From: Vitis vinifera
Lineage: Eukaryota > Streptophyta > Magnoliopsida > Vitales > Vitaceae
Length of the DNA stretch: 64,000 nt
Assembly (NCBI RefSeq): GCF_030704535.1
Contig: NC_081813.1
Coordinates: 3,434,001-3,498,000 of the forward strand
Reading direction: 5' to 3'
The translations under genes and the position numbers were made by a program. How positions within the stretch are numbered: position 1 is the first letter of the stretch; each line of letters begins with the position of its first letter. Below the pieces are notes generated by a model. It did not search any database, had not been told where the DNA came from, and was given only the letters and a program-made list of their open reading frames with translations. This document shows, piece after piece, positions 19,089 through 55,962 of this stretch.

Positions 19089-20317
19089 TGAGAAAATAAA
19101 GGCTATGATTAATTAAGAAAAACACCCAAGAGGGGGGTGAATTGGGTTTTTCAAAAATATTTTCAATAACAACAATTTCAAGCACAATATAAATGAAAGT
19201 AAAGAGATAGAGTTAGAGAATTCAAACTCGGGTTTTATAGTGGTTCGACACTTCCTTGCCTACGTTCACTTTCCTCAATCTCCTAACCAAGTGAGGGTTC
19301 CACTAACTTGAAGCTTCAACCAAGCTTCTAATCTTCTTACACTTGGATTCCGGCTCCAATGAGCTCTTACACAATCTCTTCAAGAATTACACCTCTTCAA
19401 GGCTTAAACGCTTGGCTTTTACAAGAATAAAACACTCAACCTAGCTTAAGGATGGATCAAATACAAAACAAGGCTAGGATGACTCACAAAGGTGCACTAA
19501 GGAGTATGCAAATGATGATTTAATGCACCAAGGAATAAATGAGAGCTTTTTGATCAAGAACAGGTAGGTAGACAATTGATTGCAAGTGTTCTCTTATTCA
19601 TAAATGAAGTGGAACTCTTAATTTATAGGTTTCTAAGCTCGATCATCAGAAACAGCAAAAGGTACTCTCGACCGATCGAACTATGGGTCGACCGGATCAC
19701 TAGCCGTTGGGCATTAAATGCTTTGACAGGTTATCGTTGCCTAGACCAGACCTCGACTGGACCTCGACGGGGAAGGGTGTGAACCTCAACCAGGAAGAGA
19801 AGGCTACTGGATGAGAGAGAGTGTTTTTTGACACTCCTCGACCGGTCCTCGACCGGACAGGGTCAACCGGTCGACCGGTTCCCTAACCGGTTGAGCCGGT
19901 TGGCCATAGCCTCGACCGGTTGAGCTTTTTGGCCCCGAAAACCTTCCTTTTGAAATTCTTTTTTTTTTCTACTACTTAGGCAAGGTCTTTAGGTGAATAA
20001 ATATGTCAGTTTTAAAACATTTTGCCTAAGGTACATTTGATAAAACTCGGGTTTGAATGAACTTGAAAGTTTAAAGAATAAACCGAGTTTTTCAAAGATG
20101 CATGAAATGGAATGAAAACCTTAAGTGCACCCATGCATTCATCTTACATTCATTTCCTATGATCAAGGGACTTCCAATAATCTCGGTATTGTATCCATTT
20201 GGTCCTTGGATGAATTTTCAAAATTATACCTGAGATTCTTTACCATTTAAAACAATTAGTCACTTAACCATGGTTTGTTATCATCAAAATCCGATTAGGA
20301 GAACCCTTGGGCTAACA
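19089..20317 (-). mobile_element. solo-LTR-like element, ~1.23 kb
   Basis: Read on the - strand the element starts TGTTAGCCCAAGGGTTCTCC and ends ...TTTATTTTCTCA, that is TG...CA. ATTTT is present on both sides (19084-19088 and 20318-20322), although a 5-bp A/T match in AT-rich DNA is weak. The inside holds repeat phrases familiar from plant LTRs (CCAAGAGGGGGGTGAATTGG and GTGGTTCGACACTTCCTTGC). It also has a dense cluster of ACCGGT/TCGACC motifs at 19660-19925, strikingly CpG-rich against its surroundings. No protein domain is present. The left boundary is the uncertain one. Confidence 0.55.
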
Positions 20318-41627: not shown

Positions 41628-44552
41628 TTAAACTATAACTAAATTCATTGGGGTGAGTAATGCGTGAGGTAACGAAAAAAATAAAACAAAAGTGGAAATA
41701 AAAATAAATTTTATCCACTTATAACAAAAAAAACGTGAACATGAAAACACATGAGACATTTGAAACTTTGTCCCAAAAAAGAAGGCAGTACCTGAGAAAG
41801 CATCGGAGAAGAAGGTCATCTTCTCATTTTTTCCCAACCACGAGGTCTCTTTGAAGTAGGGAGTGAAAGTGAGTTGAATGCTTTCATCCTCCCACTGCAA
41901 ACATTGCCACCACTCCAGTGTCCCTTCAATTGTCTTCAAACTGTTTCTTGCACTGTTTGAATCTAATGGCAGCTTCCTTAAGTTTGGGCATTTTGTCACG
42001 TAGAGGGTTTTCAAGGAAGGGAATGACAAAGCTCGTCTGCTGATGCTCCTTAGATTTGGTACAAGATACAAGTACAAACCTTTGAGTCTTGAGAATATGC
42101 CAAGATTTTTAGGGACCCCACTCGCATCACCTATCACTTCTTTCATGGATTCACATTCATGTACAGAAAGATGTTCAAGACTTGGGATGTAAATAATCCA
42201 TGTCAAGTCCAACAACTTTGGAAGTTTATCAACACATACAATTTGGAGGTTGTAGAAAATTGAGTTTGGGATATAATCTGCTACAAATCCTCGTCTACCC
42301 CTCTCATTTTCTAGATTGACTTTTATGTCTTGTAGCTCCCCACATCTATATATTGTAAGGCTACGTAGATGTTTGATTCTTGGCAATTGAAGTATGCTCA
42401 TACCTTCCAAGTTCCAAAGGTGTAAACACCTCATAACATTTTGTAATTTTTGAGAGTTCAATAACTTTTGGAAAGACAGAGCACCTACAATGGGCAAAGA
42501 GACCCAATTTATGTTGTCCAACCCTTCTAACTCCTCTAATAATGCTTTATTATCCTCATGTAAATAAATAGCCTTATCATCCTTCCTTGAATATTTGGCT
42601 TCCTCCTTGTCTATGGGTGACGAAATATCATTTCTTTTTGACAAGATATATTCAAATCTTATGCTAAAAACTCTCAACATTAAGAGATGTGATATTACTT
42701 CCTTAAAAATTATTTCAAGACAACTATGTAATATAAGATATCTTAGGCTTTTCAAAGTCACAAGCTCCGCAGACAATTCTCTTAGATCTGTATTTGACAA
42801 ATTGAGATATTGCAATGAAACTAATTTACCAATTCCAGTAGGTAATTTAGTTATTCTAGCATTTGACAAATCCAGAACTTTTATAACCGGCATGAAATGG
42901 AAGAATCCACTCGGAAATGTTTCCAGGCCTCCATTCCTAACAATTAAAGTCAAGAGATTGGGAAAAGATGGTGGTATAGTGAGTTCTTCCAAACTACTTG
43001 TCGACAGGTATAGCCGATGTGCCTCTTTCCACTTTGAAACTTGGTAAACTTCCATAGTATCAACTTCTTCTACCAAGATTATGTTCTTATTGCCCCTATA
43101 TTCTGAAGCTAACCATAAAGCCATATCACGAATGACATCATGCATTTTAACACTATCAAATTCACCATTCTCGAATAGACATACTGTCTTTAGATGCTCA
43201 ATGATGTGGTGCCCTTGGTTTAATGCTTCATCTATGCTAACATATTCATCCAGAAACCCTTCTCCAATCCAAAGGAATATAAGATCCTGATAAAAAAATA
43301 CATGGTCCTCCGGGAATATAGCAAGATATAAAAAACAAGTCTTGATGGTGTCATTTGGCAAGTTATCGTAACTGAATTTGAGGACCGGAAATACATGATC
43401 TCCCATACCTGAAAACTTTGATGGATAAGTCTGCAACATTAGTATGGCTCGCTCCCATTCTTGTGGTGTGCTCTTGCCGACCATAGCTCTCCCAATAGTG
43501 ATGAGTGCAAGTGGTAAACCTTCGCACTCTTTAGCAGCAGTTTCAGCCAGCTGGGGTATATCTGGATGTGAATTTAGAGTGGTCTCTCCAACCTTCTCCT
43601 TGAACAAATTGATGGCCTCCTCTTCTATCAAACACTCAACCTTAATGCTTTTTTGAGCTTCCATATCGCGACAAACATCCAGAGAACGGGTTGTTAATAT
43701 TACTTTGGACTTGTTTTGGGAATTAGGAGAAGGAACCCCCACTTTTTGGAGATGAAGCCGCTCCCATACATCATCTAGCAGCATCACAAACCTTTTTGCC
43801 TTCAAGACATTGAAAATTTCTGCTGCTTTTTCATCCTCAGTTCTGTTTCTCCATCTCTTATCCGGGATGTCTAACTTGTTGCGAATGACTTCTTGTACTT
43901 TTTCCACACTTGCTGGCCTGGATACTACAACCCAAATGGCCACTTCAAAGTCATTGCATGTTTTGAAGTACTCATTATTGACTTTGGTCACGAGGGTAGT
44001 TTTCCCGGCACCCCCCATACCATACAATCCAATAATTCCCAGTTGTTCATCTTGGATGCATCTGCAAACCTCTGCATACATCCGATCCAATCCTACAGTC
44101 TTCTCAATTGGCCGCTCATCCACCGCAGCTCTAGGCAGCCTATCAGCCACATCGCTGAAACACCCTTTGCTCCTCAGTTTAGTGACGGCACCAAGCTTTT
44201 TACTTGTTATCTTCCCCATCTTGTTGCTTGACCGGCAGTTCTTGGGACAGCAGGTTCCGAGGCATTTCTGCTGGATTTCCTGATCACCTTTCTGCAGTAT
44301 CTCCCTGACTTCCTTTTCCAAGACTTGTACTCTGTGGAGCCACCCATCCACTTCATGTGTCCGTCTCATCTCGCGGTCTTCCTCAGCACGATCCACCTTA
44401 TTCTTCACATCTTCAGCCACGGTCTTCAGATCCTCCATGGCGTTTCTCAAAGATTCAAGGGTTTCTTGCAGATCAGTGAGATAAGCAGCACGTTTGGCAG
44501 TGCAATCCCATAAACGAGAGGCAGCATCAAGGATTGGGCTCACAAAATCCAT
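41628..44552 (-). CDS. CNL-3: CC-NB-LRR disease resistance protein (974-aa open frame)
   Basis: Start at 44552 (MDFVSPILDAASRLWDC). The coiled coil is at 1-150 (VDGWL at 68-72). The NB-ARC has the P-loop GMGGAGKTT (178-186), kinase-2 FVMLLDDVW, TTR, GLPLALITIG, CFLYLAIFPED and MHD (VKMHDVIRD). LRRs follow to FTPYF. All switch motifs are intact, so the receptor is plausibly functional. Relatives stop just after FTPYF, but here the frame continues KETSWLGKNEKMTFFSDAFS and then crosses a conserved donor (CTCAG|GTACTG at 41791). The last ~55 residues, hydrophobic and Phe-rich, are therefore probably intron read-through. The real C-terminus depends on an unseen exon. It is closer to CNL-2/4 in the LRRs (ELTIPPSFPNLLTLIV) and to CNL-1 in the coiled coil (VLEKEV..ILQKGDQEIQ), suggesting past exchange. 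Confidence 0.93.
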   Translation of the reverse strand: MDFVSPILDAASRLWDCTAKRAAYLTDLQETLESLRNAMEDLKTVAEDVKNKVDRAEEDREMRRTHEVDGWLHRVQVLEKEVREILQKGDQEIQQKCLGTCCPKNCRSSNKMGKITSKKLGAVTKLRSKGCFSDVADRLPRAAVDERPIEKTVGLDRMYAEVCRCIQDEQLGIIGLYGMGGAGKTTLVTKVNNEYFKTCNDFEVAIWVVVSRPASVEKVQEVIRNKLDIPDKRWRNRTEDEKAAEIFNVLKAKRFVMLLDDVWERLHLQKVGVPSPNSQNKSKVILTTRSLDVCRDMEAQKSIKVECLIEEEAINLFKEKVGETTLNSHPDIPQLAETAAKECEGLPLALITIGRAMVGKSTPQEWERAILMLQTYPSKFSGMGDHVFPVLKFSYDNLPNDTIKTCFLYLAIFPEDHVFFYQDLIFLWIGEGFLDEYVSIDEALNQGHHIIEHLKTVCLFENGEFDSVKMHDVIRDMALWLASEYRGNKNIILVEEVDTMEVYQVSKWKEAHRLYLSTSSLEELTIPPSFPNLLTLIVRNGGLETFPSGFFHFMPVIKVLDLSNARITKLPTGIGKLVSLQYLNLSNTDLRELSAELVTLKSLRYLILHSCLEIIFKEVISHLLMLRVFSIRFEYILSKRNDISSPIDKEEAKYSRKDDKAIYLHEDNKALLEELEGLDNINWVSLPIVGALSFQKLLNSQKLQNVMRCLHLWNLEGMSILQLPRIKHLRSLTIYRCGELQDIKVNLENERGRRGFVADYIPNSIFYNLQIVCVDKLPKLLDLTWIIYIPSLEHLSVHECESMKEVIGDASGVPKNLGIFSRLKGLYLYLVPNLRSISRRALSFPSLKTLYVTKCPNLRKLPLDSNSARNSLKTIEGTLEWWQCLQWEDESIQLTFTPYFKETSWLGKNEKMTFFSDAFSGTAFFFGTKFQMSHVFSCSRFFCYKWIKFIFISTFVLFFSLPHALLTPMNLVIV

Positions 44553-45751
44553 GGCTTGTAGGAGATCACAGAAACAAAACTCAGAAAGAAGAAAGAGGAG
44601 AAATCGGTGATGAGTTGCTGATAGAGGTGAGACTAATGAATGGTTGAAATTTGTTCACAAAGCAAAAAATCTAGTGTGGGGCACTTCATTTAAGAGTTCA
44701 GCCTTATCGTGGACTCCAGCACCCATGAATTTGGACCGTTTTAAGGGGATTTTGAAAGTGATTTTAAAAAACATTTTTTTTAACAATATAACCATTCAAA
44801 AAATCTCCAAATAATTCCTACTTTAATCATATGATAACTCTTTTATTAGGTGACATTTTATAAGACCAGTAATTTTATGGAGGATATTAGCACAAAGGGA
44901 CATCATTTTTAATTTATTTTAGCACAATGATAATCTTTTTTAAGAAGGATTTTTTCATAATAAACAAAAATAAAAGCTCGCCTAAAAATGATACAAAAAC
45001 AAGTTCAATATCATGTTTCTTAAAAGGGTTATGCTAGGTTATCGAAAAGTGCTTTTCCATACCCACTTTTTTAGGCTAATAGGGTAGAGACACATGACAT
45101 GTAAAATTAAAAAGAAAAAAAACAAAACCACTTCTTCAGGTCACCCAACCGGTTGCCATGGGAATTAATCCTATGCAACACACATTGTTAGATCTATTAC
45201 ATTAACCAATTATAAATTTGTTTAATGTAATTATTTTGTTTGGAAAATTTTTTTTACGAAACAAAAAAACTAAAGAAAAATTTGAAAAAATAAATTATAG
45301 TTTATTTATTTTTGTACTATAAAGTGATTAAACCCCACATAAAAATTAAATTTAAAATAAACCAAAAAAAAAAATAATAATTTGGTGATATAATCTATAA
45401 ATTAAGGAAAAGTAAATTTAATTTATTTTAACATCAAATAATTTGTTGACAAAATTTGATGAATATTTGAAGTGTGAAAAGCAATATAATTGGTTTATGA
45501 AGTTAAAAAAATGGGTAAACTAGAAATAAATTTTATAAAATATATATTAAATTAAAATTAAATTAGTTGTGTACTAATTATTAATTGAGAATATATGACT
45601 AAATTATTTCTTAGCTTTTCAAAAAAATTGGTTGAAATATTGAAAATACGAAAAAAGGTATAATTACTAATAATATGGAAATCCAAACCCCTAATTGATT
45701 TTTTCGGTAAATTTTCATTTTGAATTTTTCGATCCATTTCACACCCTCAAA
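44553..45751. other. CNL-3 upstream region and left flank of the satellite
   Basis: A purine-rich leader (GAAGAAAGAGGAGAAATCGG) follows the start codon, then AT-rich spacer. I do not find the upstream block shared by CNL-1, -2 and -4. CACCCAACCGGTTGCCATGG at about 45144 is a lone GC-rich patch. No gene is seen. Confidence 0.5.
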
Positions 45752-48700
45752 ATGTACTGAATTTTTTAGTATTTTTGGATTTGAATTTTTCCGGAAATCA
45801 TTTGACCACCTCCTAAGTGTAATGAACTTATTTAAACAATATCTAAGTCATATGAAGTCTCGAAAATATTTTAAAAACTTCAAACAAGTGGAGAATTGGG
45901 AGGGTATGAAGAATGTGAGAATTCCTCACATTCTTCATACCCTTATGAATTTTTTAATATTTTTGGATTTAGATTTTTCCGGATATCATTTGACCGTCTC
46001 CTAAGTGTAATAAACCTATTTAAACTATATCCAAGTAATATGAAGTCCAAAAAAATTTTAAAAAAACTTCAAACAAGTGAAAAATTGGGAGGGTACGAAG
46101 AATGTGAGGATTCCTCACATTCTTCGTACCCTTGCTAATTTTTTTAGTATTTTTGGATTTGGATTTTTCCGGATACCATTTGACCACCTCCTAAGTGTAA
46201 CGAACCTATTTAAACAACATCCAATCCATATGAAGTCCCAAAAAATTTTCAAAAGTGCAAAGAAGTGGAGAATAGGGAGGGTATGAAGAATGTGAGGATT
46301 CCTCACATACTTCGTACCCTTGTTAATTTTTTAGTATTTTTGGATTTCGATTTTTCCGGAAATCATTTCACCACATCCTAAGTGTAATGAACCTATTTAA
46401 ACATTATCCAAGCCATATTAAGTCCCAAAAAATTTTAAAAACTTCAAACAAGTGGAGAATTGGGAGGGTATGAAGAATGTGAGAATTCCTCACATTCTTC
46501 GTACCTTTGTGAATTTTTTAGTATTTTTGGATTTGGATTTTTTCAGATATCATTTGACCACTTCCTAAGTGTAATGAACCTATTTAAACAACATCCAACC
46601 CATATGAAGTCCTAAAAAATTTTAAAAACTCCAAAGAAGTGGAGAATTGGGAGGGTACGAAGAATGTGAGGATTCCTCACACTCTTCGTACCCTTGTTAA
46701 TTTTTCTGTATTATTGAATTTGGATTTTTCCGGAAATCATTTGACCACCTCCTAAGTGTAATGAACCTATTTGAACAACATTCAACCCATATAAAGTCCC
46801 AACAAATTTAAAAAACTTCAAACAAGTGGAGAATTGGGAGGGTACAAAGAATGTAAGGATTCCTCACATTCTTCGTACCGTTATTAATTTTTTAGTATTT
46901 TTGGATTTGGATTTTTTCGGATATCATTTGATCACCTTCTAAGTGTAATGAACCTATTTCAACAACATCCAAGCCATATGATGTCCCAAAAAATTTAAAA
47001 AACTCCAAAGAAGTGGAGAATTGGTAGGGTACGAAGAATGTGAGAATTCCTCACATTCTTCGTACCCTTGTGAATTTTTTAGTATTTTTGGATTTGGATT
47101 TTTCCGGATATCATTTGACCACCTCCTAAGTGTAATGAACCTATTTAAACAACATCCAACCCATATGAAGTCCTAACAAATTTTAAAAACTCCAAAGAAG
47201 TGGAGAATTGGGAGGGTACGAAGAATGTGAGGATTCCTCACATACTTCGTACCCTTGTGAATTTTTTAGTATTTTTGGGTTTAGATTTTTCTGGAAATCA
47301 TTTGACCACCTCCTAAGTGTAATGAACCTATTTAAACTATATCCAAGTAGTATGAAGTCAAAAAAAAATTTAAAAAGCTTCAAAAAAGTGAAGAATTGGG
47401 AGGGTACGAAGAATGTGAGGATTCCTCACATTCTTTGTATCCTTGTTATTTTTTTAGTATTTTTGGATTTGGATTTTTTTGGATATCATTTAACCACCTC
47501 CTAAGTATAACGGACCTATTTAAACAATATCCAAGCCATATGAAGTCCCAAAAAATTTTAAAAAGTGCAAAGAAGTGGAGAATTGGGAGGGTACAAAGAA
47601 TGTGAGGATTCCTCACATACTTCGTACCCTTGTGAATTTTTTAGTATTTTTGGATTTGGATTTTTCCAGAAATCATTTCAACACCTCCTATGTGTAATGA
47701 ACCTATTTAAACAATATGCAAACCATATGAAGTCTCAAAAAATTTTAAAATCTTCAAACAAGTTTAGAATTGGGAGGGTACGAAGAATGTGATGATTCCT
47801 TACATACTTCGTACCCTAGTGAATTTTTTAGTAATTTTGGATTTAGATTTTTCCGGAAATCATTTGACCACCTCCTAAGTGTAATGAACCTATTTAAACT
47901 ATATCCAAGTAATATGATGTCCAAATTTTTTTTAAAAAACTTTAAACAAGTGAAGAATTGGGAGGGTACGAAGAATGTGAGGATTCCTCACATTCTTCGT
48001 ACCCTTGTTAATGTTTTAGTATTTTTGGATTTGGATTTTTCCGGATATCATTTGACCACCTCCTAAGTGTAACGAACCTATTTAAACAACATCCAAGCCA
48101 TATGAAGTCCCAAAAAATTTTAAAAAGTGCAAAGAAGTGGAGAATTGGGAGGATACGAAGAATGTAATGATTCCTCACATACTTCGTACCCTTGTGAATT
48201 TTTTAGTATTTTTGGATTTGGATTTTTCTGGAAATCATTTCACCACCTCCTAAGTGTAAAGAACCTATTTAAACAATATCCAAGCTATATGAAGTCCCAA
48301 AAATTTTTAAAAACTTCAAACAAGTGGAGAATTGGGAGGGTACGAAGAATGTGAGAATTCCGCACATTCTTCGTACCCTTGTGAATTTTTTAGTATTATT
48401 GGATTTGGATTTTTCCAGATATCATTTGACCACCTCCTAAGTGTAATGAACCTATTTAAACAACATCCAACCCATATGAAGTCCTAAATTTTTTTAAAAA
48501 GAGCAAATAAGTGGAGAATTGAGAGGGTACGAAGAATGTGAGGATTTCTCACATACTTCGTACCCTTGTTAATTTTTTTATATTTTTGAATTTGGATTTT
48601 TCCGGAAATCATTTGACAACCTTCTAACTGTAATGAACCTATTTAAAGAACATCCAAACCATATGAAGTCCCAACAAATTTTAAAAACTTCAAACAAGTG

Positions 48701-51490
48701 GAGAATTGGGAGGGTACAAAGAATGTGAGGATTTCTCACATTCTTCGTACCCTTGTTAATATTTTAGTATTTTTGGATTTGGATTTTTTCAGATATTATT
48801 TTACCACCTTCTAAGTGTAACGAACCTATTCAAACAACATTCAAGCCATATGATTTCCCAAAAAATTTTAAAAACTCCAAAGAAGTGGAGAATTGGTAGG
48901 GTACGAAGAATGTGAGGAATCCTCACATTCTTCGTACCCTTGTTAATTTTTTAGTATTTTTGGATTTGGATTTTTCCATAAATCATTTCACCACTTCCTC
49001 AGTGTAAAGAACCTATTTAAACAATATCTAAGCCATATGTAGTTCCAAATAATTTTAAAAACTTCAAACAAGTGGAGAATTGGGAGGGTATGAAGAATGT
49101 GAGGATTCTTCACATTCTTCGTACCCTTGTTAATTTTTTTTGTATATTTGAATTTGGATTTTTTCGGAAATCATTTGACCACCTCCTAAGTGTAATGAAC
49201 CTATTCAAACAACATCCAAACCATATGAAGTCCCAACAAATTTTAAAAACTTCAAACAAGTGGAGAATTGGGAGGATACGAAGAATGTGAGGATTCCTCA
49301 CATTCTTCGTATCCCTGTTAATTTTTTTAGTATTTTTGGATTTGGATTTTTCCAGAAATCATTTCAACACCTCCTATGTGTAACGAACCTATTTAAACAA
49401 TATCTAACCCATATGATTTCCCAAAAAATTTTAAAAACTCTAATGAAGTGGAGAATTAGTAGGGTACGAAGAATGTGAGGAATCCTCACATTCTTCGTAC
49501 CCTTGTTAATTTTTTAGTATTTTTGGATTTGGATTTTTCTGTAAATCATTTCACCACTTCCTCAGTGTAAAGAACCTATTTAAACAATATCCAAGTCATA
49601 TGAAGTCCCAAAAAATTTTATGGAAATTTGGGAGGGTACGAAGAATGTGAGGAATCCTCACATTCTTCGTACCCGTGTGAATTTTTTAGTATTTTTGGAT
49701 TTGGATTTTTCCGGATATCATTTGACCACCTCCTAAGTGTAACGAACCTATTTAAACAACATCCAAGTCATATGATGTCCCAAAAAATTTTAAAAACTCC
49801 AAAGAAGTGGAGAATTGGTAGGGTACGAAGAATGTGAGGATTCCCCACATTCTTCGTACCCTCGTTAATTTTTTAGTATTTTTGAATTTGGATTTTTACG
49901 TAAATCATTTCACCACCTCCGAAGTGTAAAGAACCTATTTAAACAATATTCAAGCCATATGAAGTCCCAAAAAATTTTAAAAACTTTAAACAAGTGGAGA
50001 ATTGGGAGGGTACAAAGAATGTGAGGATTCCTCACACTCTTCGTACCCTTGTGAATTTTTTAGTATTTTTGGATTTTGATTTTTCCGGAAATCATTTCAC
50101 CACATCCTAAGTGTAATGAACCTATTTAAACTATATCCAAGTAATATGAAGTCCAAAATTTTTTTAAAAACTTCAAACAAGTGAAGAATTGGGAGGTTAC
50201 GAAGAATGTGAGGATTCCTCACATACTTCATACCCTTGTGAATTTTTTATTATTTTTGGATTTGGATTTTTTCGGAAATCATTTCACCACCTCCTAAGTG
50301 TAATGAACCTATTTAAACAATATGCAAGCCATATGAAGTCCCAAAAAATTTTAAAAACTTCAAACAAGTGAAGAATTGGGAGGTTACGAAGAATGTGAGG
50401 ATTCCTCACATACTTCGTACCCTTGTGAATTTTTTATTATTTTTGGATTTGGATTTTTTTCGGAAATCATTTCACCACCTCCTAAGTGTAATGAACCTAT
50501 TTAAACAATATGCAAGCCATATGAAGTCCCAAAAAATTTTAAAAACTTCAAACAAGTGGAGAATTGGGAGGGTATGAAGAATGTGAGGAATCGAATGTGA
50601 GGATTCCTCACATTCTTCGTACCCTTGTTAATTTTTTTGTATTTTTGAATTTGGATTTTTCCGGAAATCATTTGACCACCTCCTAAGTGTAACGAACCTA
50701 TTTAAACAACATCCAAACCATATGATGTCCCAAAAAATTTTAAAAACTTCAAACAAGTGAAGAATTGGAAGGGTACGAAGAATGTGAGGATTCCTCACAT
50801 ACTTCGTACCCTTGTTAATTTTTTAGTATTTTTGGATTTGGATTTTTACGGATATCATTTTGACCATATTCTAAGTGTAATGAACCTATTTAAACAACAT
50901 CCAAGCCATATGATGTCCCAAAAATTTTTAAAAACTCCAAAGAAGTGGAGAATTGGTAGGGTACGAAGAATGTGAGGATTCCTTACATTCTTTGTACCTT
51001 TGTTAATTTTTTAGTATGTTTGGATTTGGATTTTTCTGGAAATCATTTCACCACCTCCTAAGTGTAATGAACCTATTTAAACAATATACAAGCCATATGA
51101 AGTCCCAAAAAATTTTAAAAACTTCAAACAAGTGGAGAATTGGGAGGGTACGAAGAATGTGAGGAATCCTCACATTCTTCATACCCTTGTGAATTTTTTA
51201 GTATTTTTGGATATGGATTTTTTCGAATATCATTTGACCATCTCCTAAGTGTAATGAATCTATTTAAACAACATCTAAGCCATATGATGTCCCAAAAAAT
51301 TTTAAAAACTTCAAGCAAGTGGAGAATTGGGAGGCTACGAAGAATGTGAGGATTCCTCACATACTTCGTACCCTTGTTAATTTTTTAGTATTTTTGGATT
51401 TCGATTTTTTTGGAAATCATTTGACCACCTTCTAAGTGTAACGAACCTATTTAAACAACATCCAAGCCATATGATGTCCCAAAATTTTTT
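45752..51490. repeat. 187-bp satellite, ~31 units, each with a ~41-bp palindrome
   Basis: The anchor TCCTAAGTGTAA (with variants) recurs at 45811, 45999, 46189, 46376, 46563, 46750, 46937, 47124, 47311 and so on to 51243 and 51430: 31 anchors, mostly spaced 187 or 188 bp. One unit is short (172 bp, near 49.6 kb) and one long (201 bp, near 50.58 kb, an internal duplication of GAATGTGAGGA). Each unit reads GTATTTTTGGATTTGGATTT, TTTCCGGA.ATCATTTGACCA, AACCTATTTAAACAACATCC, CATATGAAGTCCCAAAAAAT, AGTGGAGAATTGGGAGGGTA, then the palindrome. Copies differ by several percent, so the array is not newly amplified. The many 60-98-codon frames across it are by-products of the repeat. Confidence 0.97.
46091..46131. 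repeat. example of the satellite palindrome (perfect copy)
   Basis: The left arm starts GGGTACGAAGAATGTG and ends AGGA. The right arm is its exact reverse complement ending CTTCGTACCC. Arms are 20 bp, with a single central T at 46111. About 30 related palindromes lie in the array. Roughly ten have a T-to-A change in the right arm (CATACTTCG for CATTCTTCG). Confidence 0.95.
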
Positions 51491-52225
51491 GAATTTGTCG
51501 AGACAATCTATGCATGAATCCAACATTTTACCACCTTACTTCATTAACTAATAAGCGGTTGACCGGTATAGTGCTACCGGTTTGCCTATATTCTCAGCCG
51601 GTAGCCACTGCCAATTCTTATGCTGAAGCACCAAAATGGGCAGTGTCTACCAGTGGCAAAAAAAAATTTCAACCGCTTCATATGATGGTCGACCGGTACA
51701 CAAATATCTTTTACATGTCATTTATGTTTTTGATCCGGTCATTCATACACTCAAATGGTATTACCCAATAATGACATAGATTGGCCAATTGTTGGTAGGG
51801 ATTGAAACCGCGAGTTTTGAATATAAGAGGAAACAAAATTAAAGAAAAAAAAAATACATTTTTCTTACCACCAATGCGTTGGCTTTTCATATGTCCTAAC
51901 ATAACCTTATTCATCATTCATGAGATGATATCACCCCACCTCATAATGTATAAGACACTATTACTTTCACCCATGCACATTACTTAGCCTAGCGGATATA
52001 GGGCAATGGGAAAAAATAATGACACATAGGGGTGACGACGAGACCAAAGCACCTTTCAAATATATTAGTGTGACTACAAACATGTATGATGAAGTATCGA
52101 TTGGTCTGAACCATTGTGTCTCAAGCAATTTAATACTCATCTTGTACGATCTCATCTTCTCATAAGAATTAGCAACGCTAGAATATGCAATATGAATGTT
52201 TTCATTAAAATATTTTTGTGTAGAA
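51491..52225. other. right flank of the satellite; ACCGGT-rich fragment
   Basis: Similarity to the satellite stops at about 51490. 51555-51725 carries several ACCGGT/CCGGTA motifs (GGTTGACCGGTATAG, TCGACCGGTAC) reminiscent of the LTR-like element at 19.1-20.3 kb. The rest (51.8-52.2 kb) holds no recognisable gene. Confidence 0.4.
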
Positions 52226-53260: not shown

Positions 53261-55962
53261 CTATTTGTTGTAGGGAGTGAAAGTGAGTTCAATGGTTTCA
53301 TCCTCCCACCGCAACCCTTGCCACCACTCTGGTGTCCCTTCAATTGTCTTTAAACTGTTTCTTGCACTGTTTGAATCCAATGGCAGCTTCCTTAGGTTTG
53401 GGCATTCCATCACGCAGAGGGTTTTCAAGGAAGGAAATGGCAAAGCTTGTCTACTTATGCTCCTTAGATTTGGTAGGAGATATAATCTCAAATCTTCAAG
53501 TCTTGAGAATATGCCAAGATTTTCAGGGACCCCACTCGCATCACCTATCACTTCTTCCATGGATTCACATCCATGTACAATAAGACGTTCAAGACTTGGG
53601 ATGTAAATAAGCCATGTCAAGTCCAACAACTTTGGAAGTTGATTAACATGTACCCCGTGGAGGTTGTAGAAAATTGAGTTTGGCATAGAATTTGCTACAA
53701 ATCCCCGTCTACCCCTCTCATTTTCTAGGTTGACTTTTATGTCTTGTAGCTCCCCACATCTATATACTGTAAGGCTACGCAGATGTTTGATTCTTGGCAA
53801 TTGGAGTATGCTCATACCTTCCAAGTTCCAAAGTTCTAAATCTCTCATAGCATTCAGTAATTTTTGGGAGTTTAACAACTTTTGGAAAGACAGAGCACCT
53901 ATAATGGGCAAAGAGACCCAATTTATGTGCTCCAACCCTTCTAACTCCTCTAATAATGCTTTATTATCCTCATGTAAATAAATAGCCTTATCATCCTTCC
54001 TTGAATAATTGGCTTCCTCCTTCTCCTCCTCCGTGGATGACGAAATATAATTTCTTTTTGACAAGAGATATTTAAATATTGTGCTAAAAACTCTCAACAT
54101 TGAGAGATGTGATATTACTTCCTTAGAAATTATTTCAAGACTACCATCTAATATCAGATATCTTAGTCTTTTCAAAGTCGCAAGCTCCACAGACAATTCT
54201 CTTAGATCTGTATTTGAAAAATTGAGATATTGTAGTGTAACTAATTTACCAATTCCAGCAGGTAATTTAGTTATTCCAGTATTTGACAAATCCAAAACTT
54301 TTATAACCGGCATGAAATGGAAGAATCCACTTGGAAATGTTTCCAGGTCTTCATTCCCAACAATTAAAGTCAAGAGATTGGGAAAAGATAGTGGTATAGT
54401 GAGTTCTTCCAAACTAGTTGACAGGTATAGCCGATGTGCCTCTTTCCACTTTGAAACTTGGTAAACTTCCAAAGTATCAACTTCTTCTACCAAGATTATG
54501 TTCTTATTGCCCCTATATTCTGAAGCTAACCATAAAGCCATATCACGAATGACATCATGCATTTTAACCCTATCAAATCCATCATTCTCGAATAGACATA
54601 CTGTCTTTAGATGCTCAATGATGTGGTGCCCTTGGTTAAATGCTTCATCTATGCTAGCAAATCCATCCAAAAACCCTTCTCCAATCCAAAGGAATATAAG
54701 ATCCTGATTCAAAATTTGATGGTCCTCTGGGAATATAGCAAGATGTAAAAAACAAGTCTTGATGGTGTCATTTGTCAAGTTATCATAACTGAATTTGAGG
54801 ACCGGAAATACATGATCTCCCATACCTGAAAACTTTGATGGGTAAGTCCTCAACATTTGTATTGCTCGCTCCCATTCTTGTGGAGTCTTCTTGTCAGCCA
54901 TAGCTCTCCCAATAGTGACGATTGCAAGTGGTAAGCCTTGGCATTCTTTAGCAGCAATTTCAGCAAGTTGGGGTATATCCGAATGTGAATTTAGAGTAGT
55001 CTCTCCAACCTTCTTCTTGAACAAATTAATAGCCTCATCTTCTGTCAAACACTCCACCTTGAGGCTTTTTTGAGCCTCCATAGCCCGACAAACATCCAGA
55101 GAACGGGTTGTTAATATTACTTTAGACTTGTTTTGGGAATTAGGAGAAGGAACCCCAACTTTTTGGAGATGAAGCCGCTCCCATACATCATCTAGCAGCA
55201 TCACTAACCTTTTTGCCTTCAAGACATTGAAAATTGCTACTGCCTTTTCATCCTCGGTTCTGTTTCTCCATCTGTCTTCAGGAATGTCTAACTTGTTGCG
55301 AATGACTTGTACTTTTTCCACACTTGCTGGCCTGGATACTACTACCCAAATGGCGATTTCAAAGATCTTGCTCGCTCTGATGAACTCATTATTCACTTTG
55401 GTCATGAGGGTAGTTTTCCCGGCACCCCCATACCGTACAACCCAATAATTCCCAGCTCCTCATCTTGGATGCATCTGCAAACCTCTGTAAACATCAGATC
55501 TAAGCCCACAGTCTTCTCCATCGGCCTCTCATCCACCGGAGCTTGAGGTAACCTATCAGCCACAACATCAAAGCGTCCCTTGTTCCTTAATTCAGTCACA
55601 GCACCCAGCTTTTTACTCGCTTTCTTCCCAAGCTTGTAGCTGGACCGGCAGTTTCTGGTGCAACAAGTTCCAGGGCATTTCTTCTGGATTTCCTGATCGC
55701 CTTTCTCCAGGATCTCGTTGACTTCTAGTTCCATTGCTAGGACGCTATGGAGCCAGCCGTTCACTTCATTTGTGCGCTTCATTTGCCGTTGCTCTTCAAG
55801 TTCAACTCTTCCCTTCACATCCTGGTATGCGTTCTTCAGCTCCTGCATTGCGTTTCTTAACGAGTCCATATTTTCCTGCAGATCCCTGATGTAGACTGCA
55901 TGCTTGGCTGTGCAGTTCCATACGCGAGTGACAACATCCAAGATTGGGCTCACACAATCCAT
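53261..55962 (-). pseudogene. CNL-4: near-identical copy of CNL-2 with a P-loop frameshift
   Basis: Start at 55962 (MDCVSPILDVVTRVWNC). The frame is open to GLYGMG and then shifts to VPGKLPS and a stop, because the C-run on the + strand at 55425-55429 has five C where CNL-2 has six. This single-base deletion falls exactly in the P-loop codons (GGAGKT). The rest, from MTKVNNEFI to FTPYNK (714 codons), is fully open in the other frame and keeps kinase-2 (LVMLLDDVW), GLPLA, CFLHLAIFPED, MHD and the LRRs with the acidic insert. In-frame 3-bp losses relative to CNL-2 occur at VQ(D)VIRN, TS(S)LEEL and PY(F)NK. As read, it yields a truncated coiled-coil protein of about 186 residues. A homopolymer sequencing error would restore a full gene of about 900 aa, so the pseudogene status is provisional. 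Confidence 0.85.

What the first reader, a model, noticed from the sequence alone, without database searches (positions are those of the whole stretch)
45752..51490. A 187-bp satellite with a cruciform-capable palindrome in every unit, inside an NLR cluster
Seen directly: 31 anchors at near-constant 187-bp spacing, and between each pair a ~41-bp inverted repeat with ~20-bp arms and a 1-base centre. Such dense, evenly spaced palindromes are unusual. They could extrude hairpins, block replication, seed double-stranded RNA and small RNAs, or promote recombination. The array sits between CNL-3 and CNL-4. It may be a fragile site or silencing nucleus shaping NLR copy number, or the interior of an unrecognised transposon. 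I know of no described grapevine satellite with this design, but I could not search.
Basis: partly seen in the sequence, partly recalled or inferred. Interest (0 to 1): 0.85.

Follow-up and report, generated by a model that had tools for sequence, protein, structure and literature searches.

The report
Grape satellite inside giant jumping genes
The repeated palindromic DNA between two grapevine disease-resistance genes matches a described grape satellite, and it proves to be part of a family of very large jumping genes that carry it around the genome and in which it can swell to tens of thousands of bases.

Summary
Confirmed: a 187-bp array, 30.6 copies, window 45760-51484, with a 43-nt near-perfect palindrome per unit, between two NB-ARC/LRR ORFs. 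It is not undescribed: grape satellite VvSat85 (PMC10845522) has the same monomer length and palindrome; its letters could not be compared. What I did not find in print is its address. The array lies just inside one end of giant Mutator-like transposons; 32 of 40 scored loci share the same sharp terminus. Fifteen elements of about 21-166 kb were delimited: 11 have exact 9-bp target-site duplications by a fixed rule, two more if one base is reassigned, one has a mismatch, one none. Thirteen of 15 contain a match to a FAR1+MULE+SWIM transposase; the array was seen in the 11 examined. The window holds only a left-end fragment, fused at 52222/52223 to the flank of the next NLR gene. One related transposon end keeps the 19-bp palindrome arm, often as direct 20-bp tandems, and no excess of compensatory changes is seen. 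I therefore favour, without proof, a protein-binding array (compare VANC targets in Arabidopsis VANDAL elements) over a cruciform or silencing hairpin. A role in NLR copy number has no support here.

The parts
45026..45348 (+). Left terminus of the Mutator-like element (GGGTTATGCTAGG...), the ~323 bp also found inverted at the end of a short derivative on C13
   Evidence: Sharp start in 10 of 11 loci printed (L011 lacks it) and by the printing rule in 17 of 18 termini (L033 reads GGGTTATGTTATGG); 331-334 bp match to L074
45349..45757 (+). Rest of the left subterminal region, shared by other copies
   Evidence: L015 735-bp left end matches window 45025-45757 at 91%; 40 scored loci in the genome, 32 of them from query base 1-4
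45760..51484 (+). 187-bp tandem array (fits VvSat85), 30.6 units, 43-nt palindrome per unit
   Evidence: PMC10845522 passages
51494..52222 (+). Element interior just right of the array, with an ACCGGT-bearing stretch at about 51556-51700; about 80 bp lacking relative to L015
   Evidence: Matches L015 and L013 at 92-97%; ACCGGT at 51562, 51576, 51692
52222..52223 (.). Junction: element interior fused to the downstream flank of the NLR ORF 53264-55405(-); the element is truncated here
   Evidence: L013 and L015 continue with other sequence; window 52223 onward matches 32393 onward at 93%
41631..44552 (-). Flanking NLR ORF (NB-ARC, winged helix, LRR); context only
53264..55405 (-). Flanking NLR ORF (NB-ARC, winged helix, LRR); context only

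Best explanation
SHOWN: the array is a subterminal part of a family of giant Mutator-like transposons with a FAR1/MULE/SWIM transposase. The window holds the left end of one copy (terminus, 187-bp array, 0.7 kb of interior), cut off at 52222. INFERRED from that: the array reached this place by insertion of the transposon, as its sister arrays did on other chromosomes. INFERRED: arrays grow, shrink and homogenise locally, by unequal exchange or slippage, from about 6 units to tens of kilobases, so that the big ones are what cytology sees as satellite VvSat85. INFERRED, and the mechanism I think most likely (about 0.4 taken alone): the selected unit is the ~19-bp arm GGGTACGAAGAATGTGAGG, a binding site for a protein of the element (transposase or an anti-silencing factor), and the palindrome is two such sites head to head; the array concentrates that protein near the element's end.
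For: Terminus sharp against differing flanks; 735-bp left end at 40 scored loci, 32 of them matching from query base 1-4. Right ends found and paired. Of 15 delimited elements (about 21-166 kb) 11 have exact 9-bp target duplications by a fixed rule; two more (L086, L092) become exact if one terminal C is counted as element (seen), one has a single mismatch, one has none; 0 of 210 non-self pairs agree. The MULE ORF (PF10551 E 7e-28, FAR1, SWIM) matches downstream on the same strand of 21 of 40 left ends, 0 on the opposite strand, 0 behind, against 0.47 on average and 5 at most in 2000 shuffles; a match lies inside 13 of the 15 elements. 18 of 20 sample points in nine long intervals between left end and right part are array, in element orientation. 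Units cluster by locus: nearest neighbour in the same array for 167 of 306, 21.5 expected. A related transposon end (L026:1-1400) carries 12 arm-like sites with at most 4 mismatches (0 in each of 200 shuffles), several as direct 20-bp tandems, and the ten best-kept unit windows there all overlap the arms (TRF).
Against: No binding protein is known. Within the family the palindrome is only slightly better conserved than the rest (0.945 against 0.917; 18 of 147 windows of that width score higher). Only one related end was examined and its own transposase and target duplication were not. The arm resembles neither terminus beyond chance (57 and 126 of 1000 shuffles score as well). The one copy read outside its array for 17.5 kb has no further arm sites, and it is the copy without a target duplication. 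Arrays were seen in 11 of the 15 elements, 4 were not looked at, and five of those 11 were fetched because they had an array. Many transposase matches carry stops or are partial.
Confidence: 0.82

Rival explanations
1. Passenger satellite: the array is inside the transposon but does nothing for it; tandem units arose by slippage or gap repair near the element's end and drift.
For: Weak extra conservation of the palindrome within the family; a second tandem array of ~171-175-bp spacing grows from the left subterminal region in some copies, e.g. C19 and C1, so the region may simply be prone to tandem duplication; element length varies from about 21 to 166 kb and most points sampled in long intervals are array.
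Against: The arm motif persists in a related end whose spacers have largely diverged. The array was present in all 11 elements examined; six of these (C2, C3b, C12, C14c, C17a, C19) had been picked by left end or right part, not by array.
Confidence: 0.38
2. The palindromes act as DNA or RNA hairpins: cruciforms, replication blocks, or double-stranded RNA feeding RNA-directed methylation (a silencing nucleus or fragile site).
For: Very stable hairpin; excess of C-to-T changes (CG 0.094 at 6 sites, CHG 0.158 at 2 sites, CHH 0.062 at 59 sites, against A-to-G 0.017 at 120) fits past DNA methylation; VANC1/VANC6 target regions overlap RdDM targets in Arabidopsis (PMC10398659, passages). Of 29 double changes at paired positions 20 are complementary.
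Against: Double changes are 29 against 25.6 expected by independence, so no excess. The related end keeps arms as direct tandems, which would not form this hairpin. The methylation footprint was computed over the whole unit, not the palindrome.
Confidence: 0.15
3. The array shapes copy number of the NLR cluster.
For: The element's truncation point coincides with the edge of an NLR duplicate flank.
Against: A blunt junction inside the element is explained by one deletion; the arrays are on many contigs. A link with NLR genes elsewhere was not tested.
Confidence: 0.04
4. Assembly artefact.
For: Long arrays are hard to assemble.
Against: Units differ by about 11% within the window array, arrays at other loci stand in one orientation relative to a terminus, and a satellite of the same length and palindrome was found from sequencing reads by others (PMC10845522, passages).
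Confidence: 0.01

Closest known systems
VvSat85 (grape satellite, PMC10845522)
   Same: 187-nt monomer, almost perfect 43-nt palindrome, interstitial and subterminal FISH signals on about ten chromosomes (passages)
   Different: Described there as a putative satellite; the passages read do not place it in a transposon. Its sequence (Data S1) could not be read here.
Jittery-like grape MULEs Jitvine-1 / Jitvine-2 (PMC2528002, section 8 read)
   Same: Multi-copy grape Mutator-like elements of the Jittery branch; that a FAR1-type transposase fits that branch is recalled, not tested
   Different: Published as 11.9 and 14.4 kb with no TIR or TSD listed; here about 21-166 kb with 9-bp duplications. 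No sequence comparison was possible; other published grape MULEs, such as Mutavine-1 (17.7 kb), are not excluded.
VANDAL elements with VANC target repeats, Arabidopsis (PMC5735166, PMC10398659; passages)
   Same: Degenerate termini, short motifs in non-coding tandem repeats that diverge fast; VANDALs as Mutator-like is recalled
   Different: VANC motifs are 8-9 bases with demonstrated binding; no VANC relative or binding is shown here.
Tetris / TIR-220, Drosophila virilis (PMC4079207; passages)
   Same: A transposon placed by its authors in the Mutator superfamily whose ~220-bp internal repeats seeded satellite arrays
   Different: Foldback element without known transposase, repeats inside its terminal inverted repeats; here the array is beside one end of giant elements with a transposase.

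Membership tests
VvSat85 | 187-nt monomer | tested here: met
   against passages of PMC10845522
VvSat85 | Almost perfect 43-nt palindrome | tested here: met
VvSat85 | Monomer sequence identity | not testable with these tools
   The published monomer is in a supplement that could not be read (no supplement look-ups allowed)
Mutator superfamily (the element family) | MULE transposase domain in the element | tested here: met
   PF10551, FAR1, SWIM in the C17 copy; a match to that ORF inside 13 of 15 elements, not in C16 and C3b
Mutator superfamily (the element family) | 9-bp target-site duplication | tested here: met
   Of 15: 11 exact, 1 with one mismatch, 3 not by the fixed rule, of which 2 are exact one base over
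Mutator superfamily (the element family) | Terminal inverted repeats | tested here: inconclusive
   Degenerate ends: score 14.5, reached by 2 of 1000 shuffles, one element
Window copy as a complete Mutator-like element | Right end and transposase present | tested here: not met
   The transposase gives no tblastn hit in the window at E 1 and the right-end stretch L074 matches only the left terminus
VANDAL-type anti-silencing system | Encoded VANC-like protein that binds the repeats | not tested
   The PF09331 search did not complete; a Peptidase_C48 match is present in the C17 copy
Helitron | CTRR 3' end, no target duplication (recalled) | tested here: not met
   Ends and 9-bp duplications
Centromeric satellite of grape | Arrays at centromeres | tested here: inconclusive
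   Found dispersed on many contigs, but centromere positions were not checked, and PMC13352677 counts 187 bp among grape centromere satellite unit lengths (passage); the abundant centromeric unit is 107 bp (PMC10199708)

The most novel reading that the evidence does not exclude
A Mutator-like transposon keeps its own binding-site array near one end, serving a self-encoded transposase or anti-silencing protein, and this functional array escapes copy-number control and becomes a cytologically visible satellite inside elements of up to about 166 kb: a satellite DNA born from a transposon's control region.
Probability: 0.33. Interest if true: 0.78.

Novelty: new variant of a known kind. Interest (0 to 1): 0.5.

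Why it matters
It offers a described grape satellite an origin and a means of dispersal, shows transposons delimited by exact 9-bp target duplications at about 130 and 166 kb, and gives a testable case of how a transposon's own repeats become satellite DNA. For annotation it means that such loci should be treated as one transposon and not as separate satellite, ORFs and unknown repeats.

Tried and rejected
Rejected: Helitron (a hairpin near the left end suggested it, but ends and 9-bp duplications do not fit). LTR origin (by eye the left end is not found twice per element). The first right end taken (GGTTAAAGGG) was only a point where copies diverge. The C13:27640177 end, first read as the right end of the 83-kb element, belongs to a short derivative beside it; by eye the 9 bases outside that end and outside the left end do not match. 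A higher-order repeat at 19 units in L016 (mean distance 0.065 against about 0.09 at other lags) was followed: no segment over 600 bp at over 96% identity. Resemblance of the arm to the termini is not beyond chance. Searches of the own genome for PF20167 and PF09331 did not complete, so those proteins are placed only where I read them.

Literature: no paper that puts this satellite in a transposon appeared in the listings; I read passages or a section of seven papers only, most subscription journals are not in that library, and supplements could not be read.

Limits of counts: genome searches score only the best candidates (14; 40; 66), so loci are lower bounds. In one search, 341 of 795 aligned rows were kept (at least 170 of 187 columns), 306 of these 341 (sources with at least 6 units). 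In one search the 125-kb limit was chosen after seeing the positions (the C13 166-kb element falls outside it) and some contig lengths were rough guesses. In one search, 29 of the matches were entered by hand. Element lengths are good to a few bases.
Full report
WHAT IS THERE. Tandem Repeats Finder gives 45760-51484, period 187, 30.6 copies, 87% matches. I found 30 units with the + arm of the palindrome; 29 of 30 form at least 17 of 21 pairs in a 43-nt window with a 1-nt centre; 27 of 29 spacings are 187-189 bp, the other two 172 and 201 bp; 20 base-shuffled arrays gave none. The consensus palindrome is a very stable hairpin on paper (-34.9 kcal/mol, z -10.3). The neighbours are NB-ARC/LRR ORFs.

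IT FITS A DESCRIBED SATELLITE. PMC10845522 (passages) describes VvSat85, 187-nt monomer, almost perfect 43-nt palindrome, FISH signals on about ten chromosomes. PMC10199708 (passages) reports a 187-bp unit as the main repeat of chromosome 14, scattered through it. PMC13352677 (passages) counts 187 bp among grape centromere satellite unit lengths, which sits uneasily with the dispersed places found here; centromeres were not checked. The genome held here has 495.6 Mb in 21 contigs, close to the 494.87 Mb of grape PN_T2T. The letters of VvSat85 could not be compared.

IT LIVES IN A TRANSPOSON. Fourteen array loci were scored in the genome. Their left flanks share about 735 bp that begin abruptly at the same bases, GGGTTATGCTA or close variants, in differing surroundings: 10 of 11 loci printed (L011 lacks it), and by the printing rule 17 of 18 termini (L033 reads GGGTTATGTTATGG). 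L012, L014 and L021 showed no intact left end within the 9.9 kb fetched. The 735-bp end has 40 scored loci, 32 matching from query base 1-4. Right of the array the copies share a further stretch. Between left end and right part lie from about 1 kb to over 100 kb; of 20 points sampled in nine such intervals, 18 were array in the element's orientation and 2, one on C13 and one on C2, were something else.

THE TRANSPOSON IS MUTATOR-LIKE. In the C17 copy the order is terminus, about 750 bp, about 6 array units, ACCGGT-rich inverted repeats, an ORF with a Transposase_32 domain (E 5e-24), a 675-residue ORF with FAR1, MULE and SWIM domains, and a stretch with a Peptidase_C48 match (E 7e-7). The MULE ORF matches downstream on the same strand within 125 kb of 21 of the 40 left ends, never on the other strand and never behind; shuffles gave 0.47 on average and 5 at most of 40. 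Many of the matches carry stops or are partial. Right ends were then found. For 15 elements with both ends read, the 9 bases left and right of the element agree exactly in 11 by a fixed rule; in L086 and L092 they agree if one more terminal C is counted to the element, though L092 lies in a TA microsatellite; L085 has one mismatch; the C17 21-kb copy (L082) has none. None of 210 non-self pairs agree, even with one mismatch. The elements measure about 21 to 166 kb, and 13 of 15 contain a match to the MULE ORF; C16 and C3b do not. Arrays were read in 11 of the 15 (L019, L017, L020, L026/L058/L059, L016/L054/L055, L010, L049, L048, L050, L060-L062, L029); C10, C5 and two on C14 were not examined for it. 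Five of the 11 had been fetched for their array; the other six (C2, C3b, C12, C14c, C17a, C19) were picked by left end or right part. Long spans also hold other DNA.

THE WINDOW COPY IS BROKEN. It runs from 45026 to 52222 and then meets, without overlap, the downstream flank of the NLR ORF 53264-55405(-), whose paralogous flank continues from 32393 (93% identity). Longer copies continue with element sequence. The window has no match to the transposase (tblastn, E 1) and none to the right end beyond the shared terminus. One deletion explains this. It is not evidence that the element drives NLR duplication.

HOW IT MAY WORK. Three sequence tests bear on function. First, 341 full units from 39 sources: palindrome columns match the consensus 0.945, others 0.917; 18 of 147 windows of the same width are better; double changes at paired positions are 29 against 25.6 expected, 20 of them complementary. 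So there is no excess that would show that pairing is maintained. Second, a related end at C2 (83% over 99 bp of terminus, head-to-head with the 130-kb element, 11 bases between) carries its own diverged repeats. In L026:1-1400 the arm occurs 12 times with at most 4 mismatches (none in 200 shuffles), in both orientations and several times as direct tandems about 20 bp apart; with up to 5 mismatches 82 of 187 same-width windows of the unit have no match there, and the ten best all overlap the arms, though an AT-rich window also reaches 15. Third, units are most similar to units of the same array in 167 of 306 cases (21.5 expected), while 10 of 29 window units are closest to L015 units, so arrays both travel with the element and change locally. 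C-to-T excess fits past methylation (only 6 CG and 2 CHG sites). I infer that the arm is a protein-binding site and the palindrome two of them. A second motif, ACCGGT, occurs 34 times against 1.85 expected in the 17.5 kb read of the C17 copy, in clusters beside the genes. In Arabidopsis VANDAL elements, with degenerate termini, VANC proteins bind short motifs in non-coding tandem repeats and remove silencing (PMC5735166, PMC10398659; passages). That is the closest working analogue, not a membership: a search for a VANC-linked domain did not complete. A passenger array remains nearly as likely.

NOVELTY. The satellite is in print. Grape Jittery-like MULEs are in print at 11.9 and 14.4 kb without TIR or TSD listed (PMC2528002, section 8); whether they are this family could not be tested. 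Transposon repeats becoming satellites are in print (Tetris, PMC4079207, passages). The union, a satellite as part of giant target-duplication-bounded Mutator-like elements, was not found in the searches named in Tried and rejected.

Noticed in passing
C17 copy (L048, L051, L053); window 45148, 51562, 51576, 51692: ACCGGT hexamer clusters beside the element's genes, 34 against 1.85 expected in 17.5 kb.
   Followed up: partly
window 19841-19915: Five ACCGGT within 80 bp, outside this element; perhaps a remnant of a related one.
   Followed up: no
C19:20860233-20861870; also C1:21680704, C14:17246469, C14:19106777, C5:21213291: A second tandem repeat with spacing of about 171-175 bp, made from the element's left subterminal region, in some copies.
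   Followed up: no
C13 near 27639641-27640177 (L074): Short derivative with one right-type and one left-type end beside the right end of the 83-kb element.
   Followed up: partly
L026:1-1494 (C2): End of a related transposon, 11 bp from the 130-kb element and head-to-head with it, with diverged arm-bearing repeats.
   Followed up: partly
window 32393 and 52223: Two NLR copies share 3.8 kb at 93%, ending exactly at the transposon junction in one of them.
   Followed up: partly
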